64,000 nt of DNA. It comes from Rathayibacter sp. Leaf185 (GTDB lineage Bacteria; Actinomycetota; Actinomycetes; Actinomycetales; Microbacteriaceae). Both the position numbers and the translations under genes were made by a program. This document shows positions 7,767-33,827 of this stretch, piece by piece (position 1 is the stretch's first letter; each line of letters begins with the position of its first letter). The notes beneath the pieces are model-generated. The model was not told the DNA's origin. It saw nothing but the letters and a program-made list of their open reading frames with translations, and made no database searches. Where the stretch lies: the NCBI RefSeq assembly GCF_001423885.1, contig NZ_LMPP01000002.1, positions 566,575-630,574 on the forward strand. The letters run 5' to 3'.

Positions 7767-9197
7767 ATGACTGCGACCAGCGACACGAAGACCGCCCCGC
7801 CCGAGCTGAAGCGGGTCCTCGGCCCCAAGCTCCTGCTCCTGTTCGTCGTCGGCGACATCCTCGGCACCGGCATCTACGCCCTCACCGGGCAGGTCGCGGC
7901 CGAGGTCGGCGGAGCCGCCTGGCTGCCGTTCGTGATCGCCTTCGTCGTCGCGACGCTCACCGCCTGCTCGTACCTCGAGCTGGTCACCAAGTTCCCGCAG
8001 GCGGCGGGCGCCGCTCTCTACGCGCACAAGGCGTTCGGGATCCACTTCGTCACGTTCCTGGTCTGCTTCACGGTGATGGCGAGCGGGATCACCTCGGCGA
8101 GCGCCGCCTCCGGAGCGTTCGCGAGCAACTTCGCCCTCGGCTTCGGCCTGGGCGACGGCGCCGGCGTGCGGCTGAGCATCGCGCTGGTCTTCATGGTCTG
8201 CATCGCGCTGGTGAACCTCCGCGGCGTCGCCGAGAGCGTGGGCCTGAACGTCGTGCTGACGCTGATCGAGCTCTCGGGTCTGCTGCTGGTGATCTTCGTC
8301 TGCTTCTTCGCGGTCTTCGGAGGCAACGCCGACTTCTCGCGGGTCGTCGCCTTCGAGAGCCCCGAGGACAAGTCGCTCCTGCTCGCGGTGAGCACCGCCA
8401 CCTCGCTCGCCTTCTTCGCGATGGTCGGCTTCGAGGACTCGGTGAACATGGCGGAGGAGACCAAGGAGCCCAGCCGCATCTTCCCGAAGGTGATGCTCAC
8501 CGGACTCGGCATCACCGCGGTCGTCTACGTGCTGGTCTCGACGCTCGCCGTCGCGATCGTGCCGGTCGGCGAGCTGGCCGGCAACGACACTCCGCTGGTC
8601 ACGGTCGTCGAGACCGCGGCGCCCGACTTCCCGATCTCGACGCTGCTGCCGTTCATCTCGCTCTTCGCCGTCGCGAACAGCGCGCTGATCAACATGATGA
8701 TGGCCAGCCGTCTGCTCTACGGGATGAGCAAGCAGGGCGTGCTCCCGCCGTTCCTGCGCAACGTGCTCCCGGGTCGGCGCACGCCGTGGGCGGCCATCCT
8801 CTTCACGACCGTCATCGCGCTCCTGCTCACCGCGTACGTGTCGCGCGACCCGTCCGACCCGATCGTGGTGCTGCTGGGAGGCACCACGTCGCTCCTGCTC
8901 CTCGCCGTCTTCGCTGTGGTGAACGTCTCGGTGCTCGTGCTGCGCAGGCAGCCCGTCGACCATCGGCACTTCCGGACGCCGACGGTGCTGCCGATCCTGG
9001 GTGCGGTCGCGTGCCTCTACCTGGTGCTGCCGATCACCTCGGGTCGCGACATCGCGCAGTACGAGATCGCGGGGGTGCTGCTGGTGGCGGGCGTGCTGCT
9101 GTGGTTCGCGACGTTCATCGACCGGCGGGTGCGCGGCTACGCACGCTCGGCGAAGGTCGAGGACATGGAGGCGGCCGATCCGACGAAGGAGGGCTGA
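7767..9197 (+). CDS. APC-family amino acid permease
   Basis: 476 residues with about 12 predicted helices and the APC start motif LLFVVGDILGTGIYALTGQVA, where the GxG turn of helix 1 binds the substrate backbone. ELVTKFPQAAGAALYAHKAFG is the family's helix 2-3 region and FEDSVNMAEETKEPSRIFP its conserved helix 6-7 loop. It takes up amino acids or polyamines by cation symport or exchange. A TAGGCT box lies about 60 bases upstream and GGAG precedes the ATG. It stands alone; neither neighbour indicates the substrate. Confidence 0.88.
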   Translation: MTATSDTKTAPPELKRVLGPKLLLLFVVGDILGTGIYALTGQVAAEVGGAAWLPFVIAFVVATLTACSYLELVTKFPQAAGAALYAHKAFGIHFVTFLVCFTVMASGITSASAASGAFASNFALGFGLGDGAGVRLSIALVFMVCIALVNLRGVAESVGLNVVLTLIELSGLLLVIFVCFFAVFGGNADFSRVVAFESPEDKSLLLAVSTATSLAFFAMVGFEDSVNMAEETKEPSRIFPKVMLTGLGITAVVYVLVSTLAVAIVPVGELAGNDTPLVTVVETAAPDFPISTLLPFISLFAVANSALINMMMASRLLYGMSKQGVLPPFLRNVLPGRRTPWAAILFTTVIALLLTAYVSRDPSDPIVVLLGGTTSLLLLAVFAVVNVSVLVLRRQPVDHRHFRTPTVLPILGAVACLYLVLPITSGRDIAQYEIAGVLLVAGVLLWFATFIDRRVRGYARSAKVEDMEAADPTKEG

Positions 9198-9265
9198 CCC
9201 TCCGGCCGGTGCCCGGGACACAGGGACGGCATCGGGCGCGCATAGCCTCCTCATAGGAATCTGTC

Positions 9266-9271
9266 GATACT
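9266..9271 (+). promoter_or_regulatory. -10 box GATACT, probable leaderless promoter of the two-component operon
   Basis: GATACT ends 8 bases before the ATG at 9280, and no Shine-Dalgarno sequence lies between them. Confidence 0.45.
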
Positions 9272-9279
9272 TGTGAGAC

Positions 9280-10038
9280 ATGAGCATCCCGGCCCCCTCG
9301 AAGCACGTCGCCTCCGCGCAGCGCACCCGCCTCAAGCGCGCGGACGGATCCCCGATCCGCGTCCTCGTCGTCGACGACGAGAGCACCCTCACCGATCTGC
9401 TGCAGATGGCGCTGCGCTACGAGGGCTGGGAGGTGCGCACCGCGGCCGAGGGTCGTGCCGCGATCACGATCACCCGCGAGTTCCGCCCGGATGTCATCGT
9501 TCTCGACGTGATGCTCCCCGACATCGACGGGCTGCAGGTGCTGCAGCGCGTCCGCGCCGACGGCAGCGAGACCCCGGTGCTCTTCCTGACGGCGAAGGAC
9601 GCGCTCGACGACCGCATCGCCGGCCTCACCGCGGGCGGCGACGACTACGTCACCAAGCCGTTCTCCCTCGAGGAGCTCGTCGCCCGGATGCGCGGCCTCA
9701 TCCGCCGCTCGACCCTGCTCGCGAACGACGTCGACGACCCCGAGGTCGTCGTCGGCGACCTGGTGCTCAACGAGGACAGCCACGAGGTGCGCCGCGGCGA
9801 CACCGACATCGAGCTCACCGCCACCGAGTTCGAGCTGCTCCGCTTCCTGATGCGCAACCCGCGCCGGGTGCTGAGCAAGGCGCAGATCCTCGACCGGGTC
9901 TGGTCGTACGACTTCGGCGGCAAGTCGAGCGTGGTCGAGATCTACATCTCCTACCTCCGCAAGAAGATCGACGCCGGCCGCTCGCCGATGATCCACACGG
10001 TGCGCGGCGCCGGCTACATGCTGAAGCCCGCGGAGTAG
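9280..10038 (+). CDS. response regulator, OmpR/PhoB family
   Basis: 252 residues. The receiver domain has acidic pair Asp32-Asp33, phospho-acceptor Asp76 in VIVLDVMLPD, Thr104 and Lys106. The C-terminal winged helix (about 155-250) contains LTATEFELLRFLMRNPRRVLS and ends with the usual VRGAGYMLKP. Its stop codon overlaps the GTG of the sensor kinase (TAGTG), so the two are translationally coupled. A 25-residue N-terminal extension is unusual but in frame with the only good start. The controlled genes are unknown. Confidence 0.93.
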   Translation: MSIPAPSKHVASAQRTRLKRADGSPIRVLVVDDESTLTDLLQMALRYEGWEVRTAAEGRAAITITREFRPDVIVLDVMLPDIDGLQVLQRVRADGSETPVLFLTAKDALDDRIAGLTAGGDDYVTKPFSLEELVARMRGLIRRSTLLANDVDDPEVVVGDLVLNEDSHEVRRGDTDIELTATEFELLRFLMRNPRRVLSKAQILDRVWSYDFGGKSSVVEIYISYLRKKIDAGRSPMIHTVRGAGYMLKPAE

Positions 10039-16371: not shown

Positions 16372-16564
16372 CATCCCCAGTTCATCTCACCACACCGGGG
16401 AGCGGAAGGGGCGCGCGTCGTCATTTCGCGACTCCGCGCAGAATCCCGCCCCGGAAGCGCCGCGTTTCGACCCCGTTTCGCGCGGGAGAAAAGGACGTTA
16501 CGAAGCCCCGGACGACCCTCGGGCCGCGCCGCGCTGACCCTAGGCTCGGGAAATCCTCACGGAT
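16372..16564. promoter_or_regulatory. divergent promoter region between LacI gene and importer operon
   Basis: About 190 gene-free bases between the two operators. A TAGGCT -10 candidate for the plus-strand operon is at 16541-16546, putting the transcription start near 16553, just upstream of operator O2. I see no convincing -35 box. Confidence 0.45.
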
Positions 16565-16578
16565 GCAAAACGCTTTGC
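16565..16578. promoter_or_regulatory. LacI-type operator O2, GCAAAACGCTTTGC
   Basis: A near-perfect 14-base palindrome (one mismatched pair), about 12 bases downstream of the inferred start from the TAGGCT box. A repressor bound here would block the importer operon. Confidence 0.65.
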
Positions 16579-16604
16579 GCCCCGCGCACACGACCGGAAC
16601 CCAG

Positions 16605-17801
16605 GTGACCGTGAAAGACCTCGACCTCGCCCGCGCCGCCCAGCGCGTCTCCGTGCCCGTCGTCGCCGTGCTGCTCGCCCTCGTCATCGGCGCGATCCTG
16701 ATCGCGGTCTCGGGGCGCTCGCCGGGCGACGCGATGGCGGCCATCGGGCAGGCGGCGTTCACCTGCGACCCCGGCTACTGCAACTTCGGCACAGTGCTCA
16801 CCACCGCGACTCCGCTGATCATGACCACCCTCGGCGCCGTCATGGTGCTGCGCGCGGGGCTCTTCAGCATCGGCCAGGAGGGGCAGTACGGCCTCGGCGC
16901 CATCGCCGCCGTGATCGTCGGCTACCAGGTGCACCTCCCGGGGGGCCTGCACCCGATCGCGGCGCTCGCCGCGGCCGCCGTCGCCGGGGCGCTCGTCGGC
17001 CTCGTGCCCGCGGTGTTCCGGGTCTTCCTCGGCGCGAACGAGCTGATCGTGAGCATCATCGTCAACTCGATGGTCGCTCTGCTGCTCAGCTTCCTCATCA
17101 ACTACCCGCTGCGCGACACGGGAGGCACCGCCTCCTACACACCGCAGATCGACGAGACGGCGCGCCTGCCGATCTTCGACGTCGCCACCAAGCTCGGGGG
17201 CAACCTCGTCATCGCGCTGGCGTTCGTCGCGCTGGTCGCGGTCTACCAGTCGCGCACGACCTGGGGCTACGAGCAGCGGATGGCGGGGGAGGCCCCGGTC
17301 TTCGCGCGCTACTCCGGCATGCGCACCCGCACCGCCGTGCTGCGGGCCGCGGCCCTCGGCGGTGCGCTCGCGGGCATCGGGGGCGGCATCCAGGTGATCG
17401 GGATGAACTACCGCGTCATCGACGGGTTCCTCGACGGCACAGGGTTCAACGGGCTGACCGCCGCGATCCTCGGAGGCACCACCGTCATCGGCGGGTCGCT
17501 CGCGGCGATCCTGTTCTCGGCGATCACGGTCGGTGCGATCAACGGCCTCCAGATCCTGATGGGCATCCCGCGCGAGATCGGCGCGGTGATCCTCTCGCTG
17601 ATGATCCTGCTCGTGGCCATCCAGACCCCGCTCGCCGGCCGCCTCGAGCTCTGGCTCAGCAAGCGGCGCGGGGCGCGCGAGATCGCGGCGCGCGCGGCCG
17701 CTGCACCGCCGCCTCCGGAGCCCGTCGACACGCCCCCCGACCCCGACCTCGTCCGCGCCCACGCGGAGTCCGAGGCCCCGACCCGCGAGAGGGAGGAGTG
17801 A
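16605..17801 (+). CDS. nucleoside-type ABC transporter permease (BMP system, subunit 1)
   Basis: 398 residues with about 9-10 hydrophobic helices and the BPD_transp_2 pattern (PLIMTTLGAVMVLRAGLFSIGQEGQYGLGAI; LGANELIVSIIVNSMVALLLSFLINYPL). This is the larger permease of BMP-type importers such as NupABC/RnsABCD, which bring in nucleosides. GTG at 16605 is preferred (GGAA upstream). The ATG at 16563 overlaps operator O2, and GTG 16611 is also possible. The C-terminal 40 residues are a Pro/Glu-rich tail. First gene of a five-gene operon under LacI-type operators. Confidence 0.85.
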   Translation: MTVKDLDLARAAQRVSVPVVAVLLALVIGAILIAVSGRSPGDAMAAIGQAAFTCDPGYCNFGTVLTTATPLIMTTLGAVMVLRAGLFSIGQEGQYGLGAIAAVIVGYQVHLPGGLHPIAALAAAAVAGALVGLVPAVFRVFLGANELIVSIIVNSMVALLLSFLINYPLRDTGGTASYTPQIDETARLPIFDVATKLGGNLVIALAFVALVAVYQSRTTWGYEQRMAGEAPVFARYSGMRTRTAVLRAAALGGALAGIGGGIQVIGMNYRVIDGFLDGTGFNGLTAAILGGTTVIGGSLAAILFSAITVGAINGLQILMGIPREIGAVILSLMILLVAIQTPLAGRLELWLSKRRGAREIAARAAAAPPPPEPVDTPPDPDLVRAHAESEAPTREREE

Positions 17802-17803
17802 GC

Positions 17804-18754
17804 ATGGACTTCCTCTCGGCCTTCCTCACTCCCGAGCTGATCCACAACGGGATCCAGCTCACGACACCGATCCTGTTCGGCGCCCTCGCGGCGGCGCTCA
17901 GCTCGCGCGCCGGCGTCCTCAACCTGGCGATCGAGGCCAAGATGCTGGTCGGCGCCTTCGTCGGCCTCGTCGCCCTGGACGGCACCGGCTCGCAGCTGCT
18001 GGCGATCATCATCGCGGCCGTCGCCGGCGGGATCACCGGCGGCCTGATGGCCCTCGCCCACCGTGTCGGGGTCGACCTGATCGTCTTCGCGATCGGCCTC
18101 AACATGCTCCTCCTCGAGCTGTCGATCTATCTCATGCGCCAGTTCTTCGGCGGTGTCGGAGTCTGGACTCCGGACGTCGAGACGCTGCCCGACATCCCCC
18201 TGCCGTTCCTCGAGGACGTCCCGGTGATCGGGCCGCTCGTCAGCGGCTACAACGGGCTCGTCTACCTGGCCTTCGCCTGCGCGGCCGCCTTCGGGCTGCT
18301 GTTCCGCTACCGCCCGGGGCGGCACCTGCTCGCGGTCGGCGAGGCTCCCGGCGCCGCGAGTGCCGCGGGCATCTCGGTGCCGAGGGTGCAGACGCTGGCC
18401 CTCATCGGCTCCGGCGCCCTCGCAGCCCTCGGCGGTGCGTTCCTCACCGTCGGCGAGCTCGGCCTCTTCGCCCGCAACATGACCGACGGAGCCGGGTGGA
18501 TCGCGATCACGGCCGCGCTGCTCGCCGTGAACCGGCCCGTGTTCCTGGTTCCCGCCTCGCTCCTGTTCGGATTCTCGGACGCGTTCGCGATCCGCCTCCA
18601 GAGCACGACCGACCTGCCCCAGGTGCTCGTGCAGCTGATCCCGATGGCGGCGACGCTGATCGTCCTCGGGTTCGTCGGCTACCGGGGCCTGCGCGCCAAG
18701 GAGACCCTCGGCCTCCCGCGCCGTGCCCGACGGCAGCTCGCAGCCGTGCGCTGA
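17804..18754 (+). CDS. nucleoside-type ABC transporter permease (BMP system, subunit 2)
   Basis: 316 residues, about 8 helices, BPD_transp_2 family. The conserved opening TPILFGALAAALSSRAGVLNLAIEAKMLVGAF is diagnostic for the second permease of BMP importers. The start at 17804 has GGGAGGAG 8 bases upstream; a GTG at 17798 sits too close to it. It begins 2 bases after the first permease's stop, so the pair is coupled. It forms the membrane channel with subunit 1. Confidence 0.9.
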   Translation: MDFLSAFLTPELIHNGIQLTTPILFGALAAALSSRAGVLNLAIEAKMLVGAFVGLVALDGTGSQLLAIIIAAVAGGITGGLMALAHRVGVDLIVFAIGLNMLLLELSIYLMRQFFGGVGVWTPDVETLPDIPLPFLEDVPVIGPLVSGYNGLVYLAFACAAAFGLLFRYRPGRHLLAVGEAPGAASAAGISVPRVQTLALIGSGALAALGGAFLTVGELGLFARNMTDGAGWIAITAALLAVNRPVFLVPASLLFGFSDAFAIRLQSTTDLPQVLVQLIPMAATLIVLGFVGYRGLRAKETLGLPRRARRQLAAVR

Positions 18755-18801
18755 CCCCTCCCTCCCCAGCCCCGATCCCGCACCCGAGACCGAAGGACAC
18801 C

Positions 18802-19908
18802 ATGACCCACCGCAGCTCCGCCCTCACCCGCCGCCGTCCGCGGCAGATCGCCACCCTGGCCCTCCTGGCCGCCTCCTCCCTCGCGCTCGCCGCCTGCAGC
18901 AGCGGCGGCGGCGCCTCGGCCTCCTCGGCGGACCCCGACGCCTACAAGGTCGCCCTGGTCGGCGGAGTGGCGGGCGACCTCTCGTACACCGACTCCGCTC
19001 TCGCCGGTCTCACCGAGGCGAAGGACACCCTCGGCGTCACCACCACCCACATCGAGGCGCCCGACGTGGCGCAGGGCGAGACCCTGCTCCGCTCGGCGAT
19101 CCAGACCTCGCCCGACCTCGTGCTGAGCATCACGCTGCCGCTGGACACCGTCATCGCCATCGCCGAGCAGTACCCCGACCAGAAGATCGGCATGCCCGAC
19201 CAGAGCCTCGAGGACTCCGAGATCCCCGACAACCTCGAGCTCTACACGATCAACACCCACGAGGGCTCGTTCCTCGCGGGTCTGGTCGCGGGCACGATGA
19301 CGACCACGAAGAAGGTCGGCGCGGTCCTGGGCGGCGACTCGCCCGGTCTGAACCAGTTCGGCTGGGCGTACGAGCAGGGCGTGAAGACCGCCTGCGCCGA
19401 CTGCACCGTGCAGAAGACGTACCTCAACTTCACCTTCAACGACCCGGCGCTGGGCAAGTCGACCGCGCTCGACATGCACAGCGACGGCGTCGACGTCATC
19501 TTCCAGGTCGCGGGAGGCTCGGGAACGGGCGTCATCGAGGCGGCGGAGGAGGGCGGCTTCTACGCCATCGGCGTCGACAGCGACCAGGACTCGGTCGCTC
19601 CCGGCACGGTCATCACCTCGATGATGAAGCACGTCGACGCGAACGTCCTCAACATGGTGACCTCGGCGAAGGACGGCGACTTCACCGCCGGAGCGACCAA
19701 CGTCGGCCTCGCCGACGGGGCGACCGGCCTCTCGTGGGACGAGGGCTCGACGGTCTTCGAGGACGCGCACCCCGAGCTCGCCGAGACGATCGCCGCCGCG
19801 AAGGCGTCGGTCGAGGACTACAAGGCGCAGATCCTCGACGGCAGCTTCGAGGTCTGCGACGCCCTGAACGCCGCCGACTCGGCAGCCTGCGCCCCCTACG
19901 CCGGCTAG
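18802..19908 (+). CDS. BMP-family substrate-binding lipoprotein
   Basis: 368 residues. Type II signal peptide with an Arg-rich n-region, hydrophobic core LATLALLAASSLAL and lipobox LAAC at about 33, then a Ser/Gly/Ala linker. The mature part begins YKVALVGGVAGDLSYTDSALAGL and follows the Bmp/PnrA fold (GSFLAGLVAG, KVGAVLGGDSPGLNQFGWAYEQG). This family binds purine nucleosides in characterised members. GAAGGA precedes the ATG. It lies third in the operon, unlike the more usual first position, and a strong hairpin follows. Confidence 0.9.
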   Translation: MTHRSSALTRRRPRQIATLALLAASSLALAACSSGGGASASSADPDAYKVALVGGVAGDLSYTDSALAGLTEAKDTLGVTTTHIEAPDVAQGETLLRSAIQTSPDLVLSITLPLDTVIAIAEQYPDQKIGMPDQSLEDSEIPDNLELYTINTHEGSFLAGLVAGTMTTTKKVGAVLGGDSPGLNQFGWAYEQGVKTACADCTVQKTYLNFTFNDPALGKSTALDMHSDGVDVIFQVAGGSGTGVIEAAEEGGFYAIGVDSDQDSVAPGTVITSMMKHVDANVLNMVTSAKDGDFTAGATNVGLADGATGLSWDEGSTVFEDAHPELAETIAAAKASVEDYKAQILDGSFEVCDALNAADSAACAPYAG

Positions 19909-19918
19909 CCGCACGACC

Positions 19919-19952
19919 GCAGGAGCCGCCGTCCCCCCGCGGCGGCTCCTGC
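19919..19952 (+). terminator. hairpin after the binding-protein gene, inside the operon
   Basis: Perfect 13-base arms GCAGGAGCCGCCG (19919-19931) and CGGCGGCTCCTGC (19940-19952). Hairpins after binding-protein genes often protect that part of the mRNA or attenuate downstream genes, so binding protein can exceed ATPase (inference). Confidence 0.65.
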
Positions 19953-19995
19953 GCCGGCACCCTCCTCTCCACCATCCGTCCGGAAGGGCAGCACC

Positions 19996-21531
19996 ATGAG
20001 CACGTTCCTGAGGCTGGTCGGCCTCCGCAAGTACTTCGCCTCGTCCGGGGTGCTCGCCGTCGCCGACGTCTCGCTCGACGTGGCCGCCGGCGAGGTCGTC
20101 GCGCTCGTCGGCGAGAACGGGACGGGCAAGACCACGCTGATGAACCTCCTCTTCGGCGCGTTCCCGCTCGACGCGGGCCGCATCGAGATCGAGGGGGAGG
20201 AGGTGGCGATCCGCGGCCCCCAGGACGCGATCGACCACGGCATCGGCATGGTGCAGCAGCACTTCGCGCTCGTCCCCTCCTTCACCGTCGCCCAGAACGT
20301 GCTGCTCGGGCGCGAGCCGCGCACGCGCGACGGCCGGGTCGACGACGCCGCCGCCGAGCGCGAGGTCGCGGCGCTCGCCGACCGCCTCGGCTTCCCCATC
20401 GATCCCGGAAAGCTCGTCGCCGCGCTCCCGATCGGGCTGCAGCAGCGGGTCGAGATCCTCAAGGCGCTCGCGGGCGACACACGGCTCCTGATCCTCGACG
20501 AGCCCACCGCCGTCCTCACGCCCGCCGAGGCGGAGGACCTCCTCCGCGCGGTCCGCCACCTCGCCTCCCTCGGCACCGCCGTGGTGTTCATCAGCCACAA
20601 GCTGCCCGAGGTGATGGCGGTCGCCGACCGCATCGTGGTGATGCGCCGCGGGCACATGGTCGGCGAGATGACCGTCGCGGAGGCGTCGCCCTCGACGATC
20701 GCGCGCATGATGGTCGGCCGTGAGGTGCTCCTCACCGCCGACATCCCGCCGGGCACCCCGGGTGAGACCGTGCTCGAGGTCTCCGGGGTCTCGACGCCGC
20801 AGGTCAGCGCGGGCGACTCCGGTCTCGACGACGTGTCGCTGGCGATCGCTGCGGGCGAGATCCTCGGAGTCGCCGGCGTCAGCGGCAACGGACAGGGCGC
20901 CCTCGTCGACGCGATCGCCGGCCTCCGCCGCGTGCAGTCGGGGCGGGTCGTGATCGCCGGGAAGGACACCACCGGCCGCGGTCCGCGCGCCGCCCGCGAC
21001 GCCGGCCTCGCGCACATCGCGGAGGACCGCATGCACGTCGGCCTCAACCGCGGCGCGACCCTCGAGGAGAACGCCGTCTCGGTCGCCTACCGCTCGAGCC
21101 GCTTCCACCGCGCCGGCCTGCTCCGCCGCGGTGCGATCCACCGCTTCGCGCAGCAGCTCATCGCCGACTACGTGGTGCGCGGAGCCTCCGCCCGCCGCCT
21201 GATCGGCTCGCTCTCGGGCGGCAATCTGCAGAAGATCGTGATCGGGCGCGAGCTCGACGGCGACCCCGCGGTCATCATCGCGAACCAGCCGACCCGCGGC
21301 CTCGACGTCGGCAGCATCGAGTTCGTGCACCGGGCGCTGCTCGCCGCGCGCAGCCGCGGCGCCGGCGTGCTGCTGATCTCGGCCGAGCTCGAGGAGATCC
21401 TCTCCCTCTCGGACCGCATCGTCGTCCTCTACGAGGGCCGTCTCGCGGGCCCCTTCCCGCGCGGGGCGCTCGAGACCTCCGAGATCGGCGCGCTGATGGC
21501 CGGCTCCGGCCCGGCGGTGCCGAGCCGATGA
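19996..21531 (+). CDS. nucleoside-type ABC transporter ATP-binding protein (two ABC domains)
   Basis: 511 residues with tandem nucleotide-binding domains, as in sugar/nucleoside importers. Domain 1: Walker A GENGTGKTT (about 48-56), signature variant LPIGLQQRVEILKAL and Walker B LLILDEPTAVL. Domain 2 has a degenerate Walker A (GVSGNGQGAL), signature LSGGNLQKIVIGREL and a Walker B in which Glu is replaced (IIANQPTRGLD). These asymmetries are usual for BMP-system ATPases. GGAAGGG precedes the ATG. Its last codons overlap the start of the amidohydrolase (ATGA). Confidence 0.92.
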   Translation: MSTFLRLVGLRKYFASSGVLAVADVSLDVAAGEVVALVGENGTGKTTLMNLLFGAFPLDAGRIEIEGEEVAIRGPQDAIDHGIGMVQQHFALVPSFTVAQNVLLGREPRTRDGRVDDAAAEREVAALADRLGFPIDPGKLVAALPIGLQQRVEILKALAGDTRLLILDEPTAVLTPAEAEDLLRAVRHLASLGTAVVFISHKLPEVMAVADRIVVMRRGHMVGEMTVAEASPSTIARMMVGREVLLTADIPPGTPGETVLEVSGVSTPQVSAGDSGLDDVSLAIAAGEILGVAGVSGNGQGALVDAIAGLRRVQSGRVVIAGKDTTGRGPRAARDAGLAHIAEDRMHVGLNRGATLEENAVSVAYRSSRFHRAGLLRRGAIHRFAQQLIADYVVRGASARRLIGSLSGGNLQKIVIGRELDGDPAVIIANQPTRGLDVGSIEFVHRALLAARSRGAGVLLISAELEEILSLSDRIVVLYEGRLAGPFPRGALETSEIGALMAGSGPAVPSR

Positions 21532-27649: not shown

Positions 27650-28792
27650 TCACCTCCGCGCCGCCGCGAACGACGGCGCGAGGCGCTCCTCGAGCAGCCG
27701 CTCGCGCCGCTCCTCGTCGAGGAACCCCGCCGCCAGCGCCGTCCGCTGCGCCCGCTCGACGTCGGCGAGCGTCCAGCCGAAGCGGTCGACCATCAGCCGC
27801 AGCTCACCCGTGACCCCGGTCATCGAGAGCAGCCGGTTGTCGGGATGCACGGTCACCGCGACTCCGGCCGCGTGGAGCAGCCCGACCGGGTGCTGGGCGA
27901 GCGTGTCGACGACTCCGCCCGGCTGCGAGTTCGAGGTCGGGCACAGCTCGAGCGGGATCGCCTCGTCGACGATCCGCTGCGCGAGGGGGCCGAGGCGGAG
28001 GGAGTCGCGCCCGCCGCCCGCGCGCTGCCAGGCGGCGACGACCTCGTCGACCGGATGCAGGCGACCGTCGACCGCGATGTCCTCGACGAGGCGCGCGCCG
28101 TGGCCGATGCGCTGCGCCGCGCAGCTGTCGAGGGCGTCCTCGATGCTCCGCGCCCCCGCCATCTCGCCGGCGTGCACCGTGCGCGACAGGCCGTGCTCGC
28201 GGGCGAGGCGGAACCACTCCGCGTGCTCCCGAGCCGGGTGGCCGCCCTCGTGGCCGGCGAGGTCGAGGCCGACGACCGCGTCGCGGTTGCGCAGCGCCGT
28301 GGCGACCACCTCGGAGCCGCGGTCGCTCGTGCGCATGATCGACAGCAGCTGGCGCACGAGCACGGGCCGGCCGTCGCGGGCCGCGTCGCGCATGCCTGCG
28401 TCGAGTCCGTTCTGCACGGCGGCGAGCGCCTCGTCCATCGACAGACCGCGGGCCAGGTGCTTCTCGGGCGCCCACCGCGTCTCGGCGTAGACGACGCCGT
28501 CGGCGGCGAGCGTGCCGACGTACTCCCGCGCGATCCGGCGCAGCTGCGGCGCGGTCTGCATCACGGAGGTGGTCAGCCCGAACAGCAGCTCCCAGTCGGC
28601 ACCCGGCTCGAGCTCGACGAAGTGGGTGAACCAGTGCTGCAGCGCGTCCGCCTCCGCTCGGGGAACCGGCGCGCCCGACTCGGCCGCGAGCTCGAGGAGC
28701 GTGGCGGGGCGCACGGAGCCGTCGAGGTGGTCGTGCAGCGACACCTTCGCCAGCGCGGCGAGCGGATCGGCGGGGTCGACCCAGGTCGTCAC
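27650..28792 (-). CDS. add: adenosine deaminase family protein
   Basis: 380 residues. It has the family's first zinc motif in a slightly altered form, KVSLHDHLDGSVRP, then HAGE with catalytic Glu, RIGHG, NSQ and PDNRLLS in place of the usual TDDP, keeping the metal-binding Asp. It would convert adenosine (or a related nucleoside) to inosine and ammonia in the cytosol. The GTG start overlaps the stop of the upstream ARH-family gene (GTGA), making it the last gene of a three-gene coupled operon. The canonical Thr before Asp is Pro here, so substrate range may be shifted. Confidence 0.88.
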   Translation of the reverse strand: MTTWVDPADPLAALAKVSLHDHLDGSVRPATLLELAAESGAPVPRAEADALQHWFTHFVELEPGADWELLFGLTTSVMQTAPQLRRIAREYVGTLAADGVVYAETRWAPEKHLARGLSMDEALAAVQNGLDAGMRDAARDGRPVLVRQLLSIMRTSDRGSEVVATALRNRDAVVGLDLAGHEGGHPAREHAEWFRLAREHGLSRTVHAGEMAGARSIEDALDSCAAQRIGHGARLVEDIAVDGRLHPVDEVVAAWQRAGGGRDSLRLGPLAQRIVDEAIPLELCPTSNSQPGGVVDTLAQHPVGLLHAAGVAVTVHPDNRLLSMTGVTGELRLMVDRFGWTLADVERAQRTALAAGFLDEERRERLLEERLAPSFAAARR

Positions 28793-29814
28793 GCGCCGGC
28801 CCTTCTCGACAGCCGCAGCAGGGCGTCTGCCGTCGCGAGCAGATCGACGCCGGCGGTCCCGGGGAGCAGGATCCCCTCGAGCGCGGCGAGCGACCGGTAG
28901 GCGTCGAGTGCGCCCGTGCCGGACGAAGCGCCGCAGAGCGCGCCGACGATCGCCGGCATGCCGTCGGCGGCACGCGAGACCGACAGCGCGAGGGGGATCG
29001 CGCGCCCCGGGTCGCCACCGGCGAGCCCGACGACGACCAGCGCGACGGGGAGCGTGACCGCCGCCGCGTTCGAGTACGAGTAGTTGCGGGGGACGAGGCG
29101 CTCGATCAGCTCCGGCAGGACCGCGAAGGGAGCGGCGTCCCAGGTCACGAGATCGCGGGCGTCCTCGAGCGCCGCGGCGAGTCGACCCTCGCGAGGCCCG
29201 TCCAGCGCCTCCGCGACGACCCCCGGCAGCTCCGCGCCGCCGACGAGCGCCGCGATCGCCCGGGCCACGATCACCGCCGCGGCGACGCCGTCGCCCGAGT
29301 TCGTGATCGAGGCGTACCCGGCGGCGATCCGGCCCGCACGATCCGGGTCCCCGGCCGCCGCGATGCCGATCGCGACCGCCGCGGGCAGTGCGGTGTCGTC
29401 GTCGCGCGCCGGGTTGTCGTCTCCCGTCGCGGGAGGCACGAGGCCCAGCGCGAGGTTCCGCTCGGCACTGCGCGCGGCGATCCCCATCCAGGCGTCGTCG
29501 CGGACGTGCTGGGCGGTCCAGTGCGGCAGCAGCGCCTCGACCCGATGATCCTCGGGCGAGGCGAGCAGGGCGAGCGCGGCGGCGGCCGCGGTCTCGGCGT
29601 CGTCGGTCGCGACGAGGCCCCGCGTGCCGTCGAGCGTCGGCGCGAAGGGGAGGAGCGGGCGGCTGACCCGCTGGGCATCGAGCGCTGCCGTACCGCTGCG
29701 GACGGCTCCGCGAGGCCACGGGTGCCGGATCGAGCGGTGCGCGTCGGCCGGATGCCCGAGCGCGTCGCCCACGGCGAGGCCGAGCAGGGCACCGCGGGCG
29801 CGGTCGGCGGTCAT
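28789..29814 (-). CDS. ADP-ribosylglycohydrolase-family protein, divergent active site
   Basis: 341 residues, all-helical ARH fold. The N-terminal ARGALLGLAVGDALGHPAD matches the first family motif, and TDDAE replaces TDDT. The C-terminal motif, normally GxDxDT with metal-ligating Asp residues (GRDSDT in the next gene), reads SRAADGMPAIVGALCG, so ligands are lost. An extra acidic NPARDDDTALPAAVAIG stretch sits mid-protein. It may bind but not hydrolyse an ADP-ribose-like ligand, or use another site. 4-base overlaps with both neighbours show it is made with them. Confidence 0.8.
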   Translation of the reverse strand: MTADRARGALLGLAVGDALGHPADAHRSIRHPWPRGAVRSGTAALDAQRVSRPLLPFAPTLDGTRGLVATDDAETAAAAALALLASPEDHRVEALLPHWTAQHVRDDAWMGIAARSAERNLALGLVPPATGDDNPARDDDTALPAAVAIGIAAAGDPDRAGRIAAGYASITNSGDGVAAAVIVARAIAALVGGAELPGVVAEALDGPREGRLAAALEDARDLVTWDAAPFAVLPELIERLVPRNYSYSNAAAVTLPVALVVVGLAGGDPGRAIPLALSVSRAADGMPAIVGALCGASSGTGALDAYRSLAALEGILLPGTAGVDLLATADALLRLSRRAGA

Positions 29815-30788
29815 CGGAGCGCCCCCGCCTCGGCGAGTGCGTCGGCCAGGTCGATCAGGTCGGTCCCGGCCGTCGCGGTGATGCAGCGACCCGAGACGGA
29901 TCGCACCGTGTCGCGCCAGAGCGGTGGGATCGCGTCCTCACCGTGGATCGCGCCGCAGATCGCACCCGCCATCGCGGCGATGGTGTCGGAGTCGCGGCCG
30001 ATGTTCACCCCGGCGAGCACGGTGTCGACGAGCCGGCCCTCGTGGGCGGCGACGAGCCCGAACGCCAGCGCGAGCGCCTCCGGTGCCGCGTCGGCCCAGG
30101 GGTAGTGCAGCAGCGGGATGCGCTCGGCCAGCGCCGTCTCGGCAGCCGCGGTCTCGGGCGCTCCTGCGACGAGGAGCAGGGCGCGGTCGACGGTGCGGCG
30201 GGTCCAGCTGTCGGCGGGCAGGGCGTCGAGACCGGCATCGAGCGCCTCCTGCCACGAGCCGCCGCCCGCTGCCACGGCGACGGAGGCGGCGATGGCGGCC
30301 GCCGCGTACACGCCGTCGCGCGCGTGGCTGACGGCGGCGTCGACGGAGGCGAGGCGCGCCGCCTCCGCGGGATCGCCCGCGCAGAGCAGGCCCAGCGGTG
30401 CGGCCCGCATCGCCGCCCCGTCGCTCCAGGACTCGTCGTTGCGCTCCCCGCTGGCGGGCGGGCGGATCCCGCGGCGCAGGTTGTCGAGGGCGACCATCTC
30501 CGAGAACCCGGCGCCGGCGAACCCGCCGTCCTGCACCGAGAGGGCCTCGAGCCACAGGTCGGCGACGTCGGAGGAGGTGAGCGAGCGGCCGTGGCGGAGG
30601 GCGCCGCGCGCGCAGAGCACGGCGTACTCGGTGTCGTCGGTGCCCGCGGCATCGGGGTCGAGGAAGCCGTCGACCCGGCCCCAGCACTCGGCGATCGCCT
30701 CTCTCGTCATGCCCTCGGTGGGCGCGCCGAGCGCGTCTCCGGAGGCGAGTCCCAGCAGGGATCCCCGCGCTCGCGCCTTCAGTTCCAT
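29811..30788 (-). CDS. ADP-ribosylglycohydrolase-family protein, intact motifs
   Basis: 325 residues. GSLLGLASGDALGAPTEG (about 9-26), GTDDTE with Asp51-Asp52, and NIGRDSDTIAAMAGAICGA near the C-terminus give the full two-magnesium site of ARH enzymes. Known members remove ADP-ribose from proteins or DNA or cleave related N-glycosidic bonds. The setting here (deaminase, nucleoside hydrolases, nucleoside-type operator) suggests a role on nucleosides or ADP-ribose-like metabolites rather than nitrogenase control. First gene of the operon; CGGAG precedes the ATG. Confidence 0.87.
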   Translation of the reverse strand: MELKARARGSLLGLASGDALGAPTEGMTREAIAECWGRVDGFLDPDAAGTDDTEYAVLCARGALRHGRSLTSSDVADLWLEALSVQDGGFAGAGFSEMVALDNLRRGIRPPASGERNDESWSDGAAMRAAPLGLLCAGDPAEAARLASVDAAVSHARDGVYAAAAIAASVAVAAGGGSWQEALDAGLDALPADSWTRRTVDRALLLVAGAPETAAAETALAERIPLLHYPWADAAPEALALAFGLVAAHEGRLVDTVLAGVNIGRDSDTIAAMAGAICGAIHGEDAIPPLWRDTVRSVSGRCITATAGTDLIDLADALAEAGALR

Positions 30789-30812: not shown

Positions 30813-30818
30813 AGGGTA
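30813..30818 (-). promoter_or_regulatory. -10 box TACCCT (minus strand) of the ARH-ARH-add operon
   Basis: On the minus strand TACCCT overlaps the edge of the palindrome at 30817-30832, so a bound LacI-type repressor would cover it. The start codon at 30788 lies 24 bases downstream. Confidence 0.5.
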
Positions 30819-30832
30819 CAAAACGTTTTGTA
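30817..30832. promoter_or_regulatory. LacI-type operator O3, TACAAAACGTTTTGTA
   Basis: A perfect 16-base palindrome with central CG, sharing the CAAA..CG..TTTG core of O1 and O2 (16360, 16565). It lies between the divergent ARH operon and the nucleoside hydrolase gene and can control both. This links the two loci as a probable regulon. Confidence 0.75.
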
Positions 30833-30866: not shown

Positions 30867-31775
30867 ATGACCGCACCCCGCCCCCGCGTCGTGTTCGACA
30901 CCGATCTCGGCACCGACGTCGACGACGCCCTCGCCCTCGCGCTGCTCCTCGGCGCCTCCGACTCGATCGACCTGCTGGCGGTGACGACCGTCTACGGCGA
31001 CACCCTCCTCCGCGCCCGCCTCGCGCAGCGCTACGCGGGCCTCGCGGGGCGGCACCTCGACGTGCACGCCGGCGAGTCGGCGACGCACTCGGGCCGCGAG
31101 GTCTGGTGGGCCGGGCACGAGGGCACTCTGCACGAGGGGCTCGAGCGCGAGAGCGTCTCGGCGGAGTCGGGGGTGGACGCCCTCGTCCGCCTCGTCACCG
31201 CGGAGCCCGGCACCGTCGACGTGATCGCCGTCGGGCCGCTCACCGACATCGCCGCCGCGATCCGGCGCGACGACCGCTTCGCCGGCTCCGTCCGCCGGCT
31301 GTGGCTGATGGGCGGCGCGTTCGGCACGGGCGAGACCGAGCACAACATCCGGAGCGACGCCGACGCGGCGCGCACCGTCTTCGCGGCCGGCATCCCGACC
31401 GTGATCGCGGGCCTCGAGGTGACTCAGCGCATCGCGATGCGGGCGGAGCAGCTCGACGAGATCCGCGCGGCGGGCGCGCTCGGCGAGGCCCTGCACCGCG
31501 ACATCCGGCAGTGGTGGGAGTTCTGGAGCGAGACCTGGAACGTGCCGCACGACCCGGTGACCGTGCTGGCGCTCCTCCGCCCCGAGCTGGTCGCGCTGTC
31601 GGAGCCGGGGGCGGTGACCGTCGGCCTCGGCGGCGATCCGGAGGAGGACGGGTTCACGACGTTCACGCCCGACGCGTCCGGCTCGACGCGCCTGGTCGTC
31701 GATCTCGATCCCGAGGCGGTCTCGGCGGCCATCGTCGCCGGGGTGCAGGCGGCGGGCCGGCCCCTCGAGGAGTGA
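30867..31775 (+). CDS. nucleoside hydrolase (IU-NH family)
   Basis: 302 residues. The calcium-binding N-terminal cluster VVFDTDLGTDVDDALAL (Asp11, Asp13, Asp19-20), VTTVYGDT, the AVGPLTDIA loop, TEHNIRSDADAA and a late HDPVTVLAL with the final Asp/His give an intact active site. It hydrolyses the N-glycosidic bond of purine or pyrimidine ribonucleosides to base plus ribose. It is divergent from the ARH operon across operator O3, and 4 bases from the convergent second nucleoside hydrolase. Confidence 0.92.
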   Translation: MTAPRPRVVFDTDLGTDVDDALALALLLGASDSIDLLAVTTVYGDTLLRARLAQRYAGLAGRHLDVHAGESATHSGREVWWAGHEGTLHEGLERESVSAESGVDALVRLVTAEPGTVDVIAVGPLTDIAAAIRRDDRFAGSVRRLWLMGGAFGTGETEHNIRSDADAARTVFAAGIPTVIAGLEVTQRIAMRAEQLDEIRAAGALGEALHRDIRQWWEFWSETWNVPHDPVTVLALLRPELVALSEPGAVTVGLGGDPEEDGFTTFTPDASGSTRLVVDLDPEAVSAAIVAGVQAAGRPLEE

Positions 31776-32906: not shown

Positions 32907-33827
32907 ATGACAACCACACCGCCTCCGCTCGGCCTCCTCCTCGACGTCGACGGCCCCATCGCCAGCCCCGTGACCCGCACGATCTCGATCCCGGCCATCG
33001 CCGACGACCTCGTGACGCTCGCGAACGCGGGGATCCCGATCGTCTTCAACACCGGCCGCTCCGACGCGTTCCTGCGCGAGCGGGTGCTGCCCTCCCTCCT
33101 CGAGCGCGGCGTCTCGGCCGACGCCCGCATCGTGTGCGTCTGCGAGAAGGGCGCCGTGTGGTTCACGGTCGACTACCGCGGCACCTCCGAGCCGATCGTC
33201 GACGAGTCGCTCGCGATCCCGGAGGCGGTGGCCCGCGATCTCGAGCGGATGATCCGCTCCGACTACGACGACCTGGTCTTCTTCGACGAGACCAAGCGCG
33301 CGATGGTGTCGGCCGAGCAGCTCGTCGACCTCTCGAGCGAGGACTACCTCGAGCGCCAGCTCGTGTTCGACGCCGACGCGCTGCAGATCATGACCGCAGC
33401 GGGCCTCGGAGTCGAGCGCCGCGGCATCCGCTACCCCGACGACGCCGGCAAGGTCCAGTACCGCATCGACCCCACCGTCATCTCGACCGACATCGAGTCG
33501 AACCGTCTCGGCAAGGACCTGGGCGCCCAGCGCGCCGTCGAGCTGCTCGGCGCCACCGGCGCGATCCCGCAGCGCTGGCGCACCGTCGGCGACTCCCGGA
33601 GCGACTACGCGATGGCCGACTGGCTGTTCGAGCACGCCTACGACGTGGCCCACGTCGACGTGCGGCCGGCCGAGGGCGTGCCCGAGAAGCCCTACCCGAT
33701 TCTCGTGGTCGACGGCCTGGTCAACGACGAGGCCGGCGCGAGCGTGCTGAAGCGCTGGACCGAGCTCGTGGCCGACGAGACGACCCCCGAGGTCGGCGGC
33801 GGAATCTCCCTCCACTCCCGCGAGTGA
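32907..33827 (+). CDS. HAD-superfamily hydrolase (Cof-like)
   Basis: 306 residues. Motif I LLLDVDGPIASP (DxD nucleophile and acid) and motif II as TGRS after VFNTGRSDAFL. KDLGAQRAVELLG supplies the motif III Lys, and VGDSRSDYAMADWLF is motif IV. The large cap between motifs II and III is of the Cof type. Such enzymes remove phosphate from sugar phosphates, nucleotides or cofactors; substrate unknown. Followed by the epimerase gene under its own -10 box. Confidence 0.82.
   Translation: MTTTPPPLGLLLDVDGPIASPVTRTISIPAIADDLVTLANAGIPIVFNTGRSDAFLRERVLPSLLERGVSADARIVCVCEKGAVWFTVDYRGTSEPIVDESLAIPEAVARDLERMIRSDYDDLVFFDETKRAMVSAEQLVDLSSEDYLERQLVFDADALQIMTAAGLGVERRGIRYPDDAGKVQYRIDPTVISTDIESNRLGKDLGAQRAVELLGATGAIPQRWRTVGDSRSDYAMADWLFEHAYDVAHVDVRPAEGVPEKPYPILVVDGLVNDEAGASVLKRWTELVADETTPEVGGGISLHSRE

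What the first reader, a model, noticed from the sequence alone, without database searches (positions are those of the whole stretch)
28789..30788. Tandem ADP-ribosylglycohydrolase paralogues, one with a lost metal site, coupled to adenosine deaminase
The upstream copy keeps TDDT and GRDSDT; the second has TDDAE and, where GxDxDT should be, SRAADGMPAIVG. All three genes overlap by 4 bases (ATGA, GTGA). A catalytic plus a non-catalytic ARH paralogue beside a deaminase and nucleoside hydrolases suggests a heteromeric enzyme or a sensor subunit acting on a nucleoside-like or ADP-ribose-like compound. This is the best candidate in the window for an undescribed activity.
Basis: partly seen in the sequence, partly recalled or inferred. 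Interest (0 to 1): 0.7.

Follow-up and report, generated by a model that had tools for sequence, protein, structure and literature searches.

The report
Conserved enzyme–pseudoenzyme ARH gene pair
Two neighbouring bacterial genes make sister proteins of the ADP-ribosylhydrolase family, one with an intact active site and one with an altered one, and because the two were found together wherever the sequence could be read they probably work as one enzyme.

Summary
In detail: 28789-30788 holds two tandem PF03747 genes, A (29811-30788, intact motifs) and B (28789-29814, altered metal site), with ATGA/GTGA overlaps to each other and to an adenosine deaminase. It is not local. Of 95 loci with A, 84 have B as the next ARH downstream; the other 11 end at a contig edge or N gap; none has B alone. 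B is one clade. Its members lack the first Asp of GxDxDT (human ARH3 Asp314, an MgB ligand); most keep TDD/SDD and the second Asp. B is conserved (dN/dS 0.24, one comparison), and one genome fuses A and B. Adenosine deaminase is not part of it (2 of 95). Neighbours vary by lineage: LacI with a sugar ABC importer (43 of 95), ribokinase (49), importer plus ribokinase (20), nucleoside genes (4). Best explanation: an obligate enzyme-pseudoenzyme heteromer freeing ribose from an imported riboside. Pairing is well supported; contact, B's inactivity and the substrate are inferred. S. coelicolor SCO2028-2031, probably this operon, are in print as uncharacterised; my searches found no description of the pairing.

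The parts
29811..30788 (-). A: ADP-ribosylglycohydrolase-family protein with intact two-metal motifs, 325 aa
   Evidence: PF03747 196 bits; TDDTE and GRDSDT
28789..29814 (-). B: degenerate sister paralogue, 341 aa; Asp314-equivalent and Glu-flap Glu replaced, TDD and Asp316-equivalent kept; ATG overlaps the stop of A (ATGA)
   Evidence: PF03747 103.7 bits; TDDAE, SRAADG; dN/dS 0.237 against L030; overlap
27650..28792 (-). adenosine deaminase, GTG start overlapping the stop of B (GTGA); neighbour in this lineage only
   Evidence: PF00962 253.9 bits; TIGR01430 225.3 bits, cut-off 216.55; 2 of 95 loci
30817..30832 (.). perfect 16-bp palindrome TACAAAACGTTTTGTA between A and the divergent nucleoside hydrolase; LacI-type operator candidate
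   Evidence: 0 expected in 100 shuffles; 14-bp core at one place in the genome; similar sites upstream of A in relatives
30867..31775 (+). [quoted passage not shown]
   Evidence: PF01156 161.9 bits
31780..32754 (-). nucleoside hydrolase 2
   Evidence: PF01156 255.2 bits
15317..16303 (-). LacI-family regulator; possible regulator of the Bmp operon and, more tentatively, of A-B
   Evidence: PF00356 52.4 bits, PF13377 96 bits
16359..16372 (.). operator-like palindrome CCAAAGCGCTTTGC (3 mismatches to GCAAAACGTTTTGC)
16565..16578 (.). operator-like palindrome GCAAAACGCTTTGC (1 mismatch) at the head of the Bmp importer operon; it overlaps the first ATG of that ORF, so the real start is probably downstream
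16563..21531 (+). Bmp/PnrA-like ABC importer (two permeases, binding protein, ATPase)
   Evidence: PF02653, PF02608, PF00005
21528..22850 (+). amidohydrolase overlapping the end of the importer operon
   Evidence: PF01979 135.1 bits

Best explanation
A and B are two subunits of one obligate heteromeric glycohydrolase. A keeps the complete two-metal ARH motifs and would do the chemistry, splitting a ribosyl bond. B is a pseudoenzyme subunit that keeps much of the ARH pocket and probably the MgA-type ligands but has lost the MgB ligand and the Glu-flap Glu; it would stabilise, complete or regulate A, perhaps by binding substrate or product. The pair serves the breakdown of a ribose-containing compound taken up by an ABC importer under LacI-type control, the released ribose going to a ribokinase; in the window's lineage the pair has joined a nucleoside-salvage region, so the compound there may be a nucleoside-containing riboside. 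Shown: pairing, order, shared ancestry, residue loss, conservation, one natural fusion, neighbours, palindrome. Inferred: physical contact, B's inactivity, ribosyl chemistry, substrate, and which LacI protein binds.
For: Pairing: 84 of 95 loci with A also have B; in all 83 where order was measured (the fused one apart) the nearest ARH upstream of B is A, domains -10 to 1,010 bases apart, 55 of 83 within 150; the 11 others are truncated; B without A 0. In 386 phylum genomes the same 10 score at least 465 bits with the A profile and at least 356 with the B profile. Ancestry: A+B clade support 0.932; all 84 B in one clade (0.92 and 1.0 on its two bordering nodes). Loss: rows were labelled B by lacking the first Asp of GxDxDT; the independent facts are that these 84 are one clade and sit after A. 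Asp316-equivalent kept in 78 of 84 B; Glu in 3 of 84 B against 95 of 97 A. In ARH3, D314A loses MgB and binds ADP-ribose 44-fold more weakly, and D314E also loses MgB (PMC8141533 passages). Contact: A and B in one ORF in L093. Constraint: dN/dS B 0.237, A 0.186. Ribose: ribokinase-like gene in 49 of 95 loci; 3 of 5 tested pass TIGR02152. Uptake and control: CUT1 permease 51, LacI 47, both 43 of 95.
Against: Structure prediction was off, so contact rests on genetics and one fusion in a draft genome. B keeps most MgA ligands and conserved pocket-region residues (His26, Arg27, Asp133, Asn134, Asp140 in at least 90% of 37 B), so it may still be active. Importer and ribokinase occur together in only 20 of 95 loci; Streptomyces has ribokinase in 31 of 45 but CUT1 in 7 and LacI in 6 of 45; outside Streptomyces ribokinase is in 18 of 50; the window's pair has none nearby. 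Two of five kinases miss the ribokinase cut-off. The 10 phylum genomes belong to two genera. Operator-like sites were found before A in 22 of 95 loci, none of them Streptomyces.
Confidence: 0.5

Rival explanations
1. B is a sensor or regulator rather than a fixed subunit: it binds the substrate or ribose in its remaining pocket and controls A or another pathway protein without a stable complex.
For: B conserves pocket-region residues although the Asp314-equivalent is lost; it is conserved at the protein level.
Against: Natural A-B fusion, 4-base overlap in the window and constant adjacency favour a stoichiometric partner.
Confidence: 0.2
2. B is an active enzyme with a remodelled site (one metal, or a new ligand such as His26), cutting the same or a second bond.
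For: Asp316-equivalent kept in 78 of 84 B and the TDD or SDD Asp pair in most; His26-Arg27 near-invariant beside the lost Glu.
Against: In ARH3, replacing Asp314 removes MgB and impairs activity (PMC8141533 passages). The more divergent B of L040, L041 and L043 have also lost one or both Asp of the DD pair and the Asp316-equivalent.
Confidence: 0.17
3. The pair acts on ADP-ribosylated protein, nucleic acid or small molecule (signalling or detoxification) and sits in catabolic surroundings for other reasons.
For: The ARH enzymes described in the passages I read (DraG, ARH1, ARH3) act on ADP-ribosyl bonds (PMC7050489 passages).
Against: Sugar importer, LacI and ribokinase neighbours; no PADLOC match; scores far below the DraG and Tri1 cut-offs. 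SCO2028 and SCO2030 assayed singly had no activity on U-alpha-ADPr (PMC13036486 passages), though that is one substrate and lacked partners.
Confidence: 0.13

Closest known systems
DraG/ARH superfamily (Pfam PF03747), e.g. MJ1187 (PDB 1t5j) and DraG (2woe, 3g9d)
   Same: Sequence family and, in A, the two-metal motifs
   Different: A scores 65 bits against the DraG cut-off 337.05 and 38.4 against Tri1's 490; different gene context; constant degenerate partner
Vertebrate ADPRHL1 (ARH2) pseudoenzyme
   Same: ARH-family protein described as a pseudoenzyme or suspected inactive (abstract starts in the listing; PMC7050489 passages)
   Different: A vertebrate heart protein, not a bacterial operon partner of an intact paralogue
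ARH-family chains mt-SAF23 (6sga_FP) and ARHL (8xks_Q)
   Same: PDB sequences matched by the A profile, ARHL also by the B profile; the chain letters suggest multi-chain entries, which I did not look up
   Different: Not shown here to pair with an active ARH
Streptomyces coelicolor SCO2028-SCO2031
   Same: Listed in print as uncharacterised DraG/ARH homologues (PMC9411070 passage; PMC5087735 passages, without SCO2031); by gene order probably A, B, C, D of the four-ARH operon (inference; S. coelicolor was not among my loci)
   Different: The passages I saw do not mention a lost metal ligand or a pairing; SCO2028 and SCO2030 were assayed singly

Membership tests
ADP_ribosyl_GH (PF03747) | score above the curated cut-off of 26.2 bits | tested here: met
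   A 196, B 103.7
Active ARH enzyme: protein A | Thr/Ser-Asp-Asp plus GxDxD(T/S) metal ligands | tested here: met
   TDDTE and GRDSDT in A of the window
Active ARH enzyme: protein B | Thr/Ser-Asp-Asp plus GxDxD(T/S) metal ligands | tested here: not met
   first Asp of GxDxDT is Ala in B of the window
Active ARH enzyme | hydrolase activity of A or B | not testable with these tools
   needs an assay
DraG (TIGR02662) | score above 337.05 bits | tested here: not met
   A 65, B 11.8
Tri1 (NF041672) | score above 490 bits | tested here: not met
   A 38.4, B 15.1
Pseudoenzyme: protein B | loss of an essential catalytic or metal residue, kept through evolution | tested here: met
   84 B rows without the Asp314-equivalent form one clade
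Pseudoenzyme: protein B | retained fold | not testable with these tools
   structure prediction switched off; sequence-profile similarity to ARH structures only
Pseudoenzyme: protein B | no catalytic activity | not testable with these tools
   needs an assay
Ribose-releasing catabolic operon | ribokinase beside the hydrolase | tested here: inconclusive
   49 of 95 loci, 3 of 5 tested pass the equivalog cut-off; none found near the window's pair
Adenosine-deaminase-coupled system | ADA conserved beside the pair | tested here: not met
   2 of 95 loci

The most novel reading that the evidence does not exclude
A two-subunit ARH-fold ribosidase, enzyme plus obligate pseudoenzyme, that cleaves small imported ribosides rather than ADP-ribosylated targets, in operons with up to four ARH paralogues. 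In the window's lineage it would feed on ribosylated nucleosides, for example ribosyl-adenosine compounds derived from poly(ADP-ribose), giving adenosine and ribose to the deaminase and nucleoside hydrolases.
Probability: 0.3. Interest if true: 0.78.

Novelty: new variant of a known kind. Interest (0 to 1): 0.6.

Why it matters
Several bacterial ARH proteins are listed in print as uncharacterised, and the assays I saw used single proteins on ADP-ribosylated substrates. If A needs B, single-protein assays such as that on SCO2028 could look negative for the wrong reason. A conserved enzyme-pseudoenzyme pair in uptake operons would extend the ARH fold from signalling to catabolism, and the test is simple: express A together with B.

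Tried and rejected
Adenosine deaminase as conserved partner: rejected (2 of 95 loci). Anti-phage defence: no PADLOC match for A, B and two further ARHs of L040. DraG or Tri1 identity: far below cut-offs. Recent pseudogene: rejected; B was found as an open frame in 84 loci, forms one clade, and shows dN/dS 0.237 in one pairwise comparison. Eight genomes of another family matched the A profile at 156-167 bits; their ARHs carry WTDDTK or WTDDTQ and no second ARH appeared in the 3-4 kb read; not counted as A. Two genomes matched the B profile at 89.6 and 94.5 bits; their motifs are of the DDDI type; not counted as B. Alignment A4 for the fused protein judged useless: B rows seem to have aligned to the A half. 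A draw of eight control palindromes happened to include the test pattern; the other seven gave 0-8 sites against 27. Literature: nine searches of the open PMC library (in some only the top rows were listed) showed no paper describing the pair.
Full report
Check of the observation. Two PF03747 genes lie on the minus strand, A 29811-30788 and B 28789-29814, followed by adenosine deaminase 27650-28792. The overlaps ATGA and GTGA are real. A has TDDTE and GRDSDT, B has TDDAE and SRAADG. They are 31% identical and the only two PF03747 matches found in the genome.

How widespread. With B as query, 3 of 15 genomes of the genus matched and 15 of 398 of the family at E <= 1e-10: 11 carry A and a B of the window's type side by side, and 4 carry A followed by a more degenerate B in an operon with further ARH genes. 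I examined these 80, the window and the 14 family loci: 95 loci. Four genomes are present twice (L034/L052, L035/L056, L037/L058, L042/L084; a 2-kb stretch is identical in each pair).

Pairing. B is present in 84 of 95 loci. Leaving out the fused case, in 83 of 83 the nearest ARH upstream of B on its strand is A; the domains lie -10 to 1,010 bases apart, 55 of 83 within 150. The 11 loci without B are L065 (a run of N right after A) and L068, L081, L089, L092, L097, L100, L105, L106, L109 and L114, which stop at a contig end at most 562 bases after A. B without A: 0. Two further samples agree. In 396 order genomes three have strong A matches (357 bits or more) and the same three have B, one of them weakly (103.8 bits). 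In 386 phylum genomes ten have A at 465 bits or more and the same ten have B at 356 bits or more on the same strand and nearby; they are the window's genome and nine of one other genus. Other matches in these samples were lower (A profile 156-167 bits in eight genomes; B profile, A itself apart, about 100 bits or less).

Origin and motifs. Classes were assigned by motif: B means the first Asp of GxDxDT is absent, so the absence itself is not a test; the tree and the position are. In a tree of 339 ARH sequences A+B form a clade (support 0.932; with six background rows), and all 84 B fall in one clade whose only other members are three background rows, from L125, L126 and L154, loci brought in by the order scans. 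Of 97 A rows, 95 form a clade with three background rows (0.946); the other two, the second intact copies of the KSB1 loci L069 and L072, are sisters of B (0.929), so an intact relative of B still exists there. Among B the lost Asp is V 38, Q 13, H 8, K 7, L 5, N 5, E 3, R 2, A 2, T 1; the second Asp is kept in 78 of 84 and the Glu-flap Glu in 3 of 84. All 97 A have TDDTE or SDDTE; 95 have the Glu. Profile alignments to PDB sequences put B's changed residue on the ARH3 GGDTDT motif. In ARH3 Asp314 binds MgB and the ribose 3''-OH; D314A loses MgB and binds ADP-ribose 44-fold more weakly, D314E also loses MgB, and Thr76, Asp77, Asp78 and Asp316 bind MgA (PMC8141533, passages). So B should lack MgB and may keep MgA. 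B also conserves His26, Arg27, Asp133, Asn134 and Asp140 in at least 90% of 37 rows. Against L030, dN/dS is 0.237 for B, 0.186 for A, 0.218 for ADA, 0.170 and 0.083 for the two nucleoside hydrolases.

Physical link. In Allokutzneria sp. NRRL B-24872 (L093) A and B form one open reading frame with no stop between: one case of 84, in a draft genome. In many Streptomyces a variable low-complexity stretch separates the domains.

Context. Homologues by tblastn (E <= 1e-12) in the 95 loci: CUT1 permeases 51 and 50, ribokinase-like 49, LacI 47, CUT1 binding protein 47, CoA transferase 41, HpcH aldolase 40, nucleoside hydrolases and Bmp importer 4 each (three genomes), adenosine deaminase 2. These are lower bounds, since 17 of 95 loci are shorter than 14 kb. 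The context depends on lineage: CUT1 with LacI in 43 of 95, CUT1 with ribokinase in 20, all three in 15, none of the three in 11. In the 45 Streptomyces loci ribokinase is in 31, CUT1 in 7, LacI in 6; in the 50 others CUT1 is in 44, LacI in 41, ribokinase in 18. Three of five kinases tested exceed the TIGR02152 ribokinase cut-off of 299.65 (315.9, 309.3, 317.5) and two do not (267.8, 253.9). Forty-eight loci have all four ARH types A, B, C, D.

Regulation. A perfect palindrome TACAAAACGTTTTGTA lies between A and the divergent nucleoside hydrolase; its 14-base core occurs at one place in the 4.1 Mb genome. Sites within two mismatches of GCAAAACGTTTTGC, a pattern chosen after seeing the sites, number 27 in 1.56 Mb; 23, in 22 loci, lie within 320 bases upstream of A; base-shuffled loci gave 1.6 on average (5 replicates); no Streptomyces locus had one. 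In the window the only other such site heads the Bmp importer operon beside a LacI gene. LacI operators resemble one another and the genome has 45 LacI-like matches, so the link to that LacI is tentative.

Interpretation. One ancient split, a fixed loss of one metal ligand, constant adjacency, conservation and a fusion are what an obligate enzyme-pseudoenzyme complex would leave. A ribosyl-adenosine compound would explain the deaminase and nucleoside hydrolases here, but that is speculation. 3'-O-beta-D-ribofuranosyladenosine is reported as plant derived (PMC6290457, start of abstract in a listing), yet ARH1 and ARH3 select alpha linkages (PMC7050489, passages), which speaks against that isomer.

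Literature. SCO2028-SCO2031 are named among uncharacterised DraG/ARH homologues (PMC9411070, passage); the earlier list lacks SCO2031 (PMC5087735, passages). SCO2028 and SCO2030, purified singly, had no detectable activity on U-alpha-ADPr (PMC13036486, passages). Passages of PMC11833690 concern another S. coelicolor ARH, SCO5809. That SCO2028-2031 are A, B, C, D is inferred from gene order; that gltB/gltD, which flank the Streptomyces operon here by my reading of the sequence, are SCO2026/SCO2025 is recalled and comes from no call.

Noticed in passing
L112:13842-16105, L041:264-2227, L070:15896-16948: A CoA-transferase family III gene and an HpcH/HpaI (citrate lyase-like) aldolase lie near the ARH operon in 41 and 40 of 95 loci (34 each of 45 Streptomyces, plus several other genera), hinting at an organic-acid part of the substrate. 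In L070 only the CoA transferase was seen.
   Followed up: partly
L069:10636-11619 and L072:7140-8114 (KSB1): A second intact ARH copy that is sister to B in the tree (support 0.929): a relative of B that kept the Asp.
   Followed up: partly
L073, L095, L123 and other Streptomyces loci, about 8950-9950: Variable low-complexity stretch between A and B, attached to the tail of A or the head of B; nine Streptomyces contigs end there or at the end of A, perhaps an assembly problem.
   Followed up: no
L060-L064 (Bacillaceae): In L060 the ARH operon includes an AtuA-family gene and sits beside an AbgT transporter and two M20 peptidases; similar genes in the other four.
   Followed up: no
window 32907-33827: ORF, 97% identical in L030 over the longer frame from 32901, with no Pfam match at E <= 1e-4.
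   Followed up: no
L038:11379-12707: Alpha-amylase-like gene downstream of the A-B pair in L038, with a homologue in L039.
   Followed up: no
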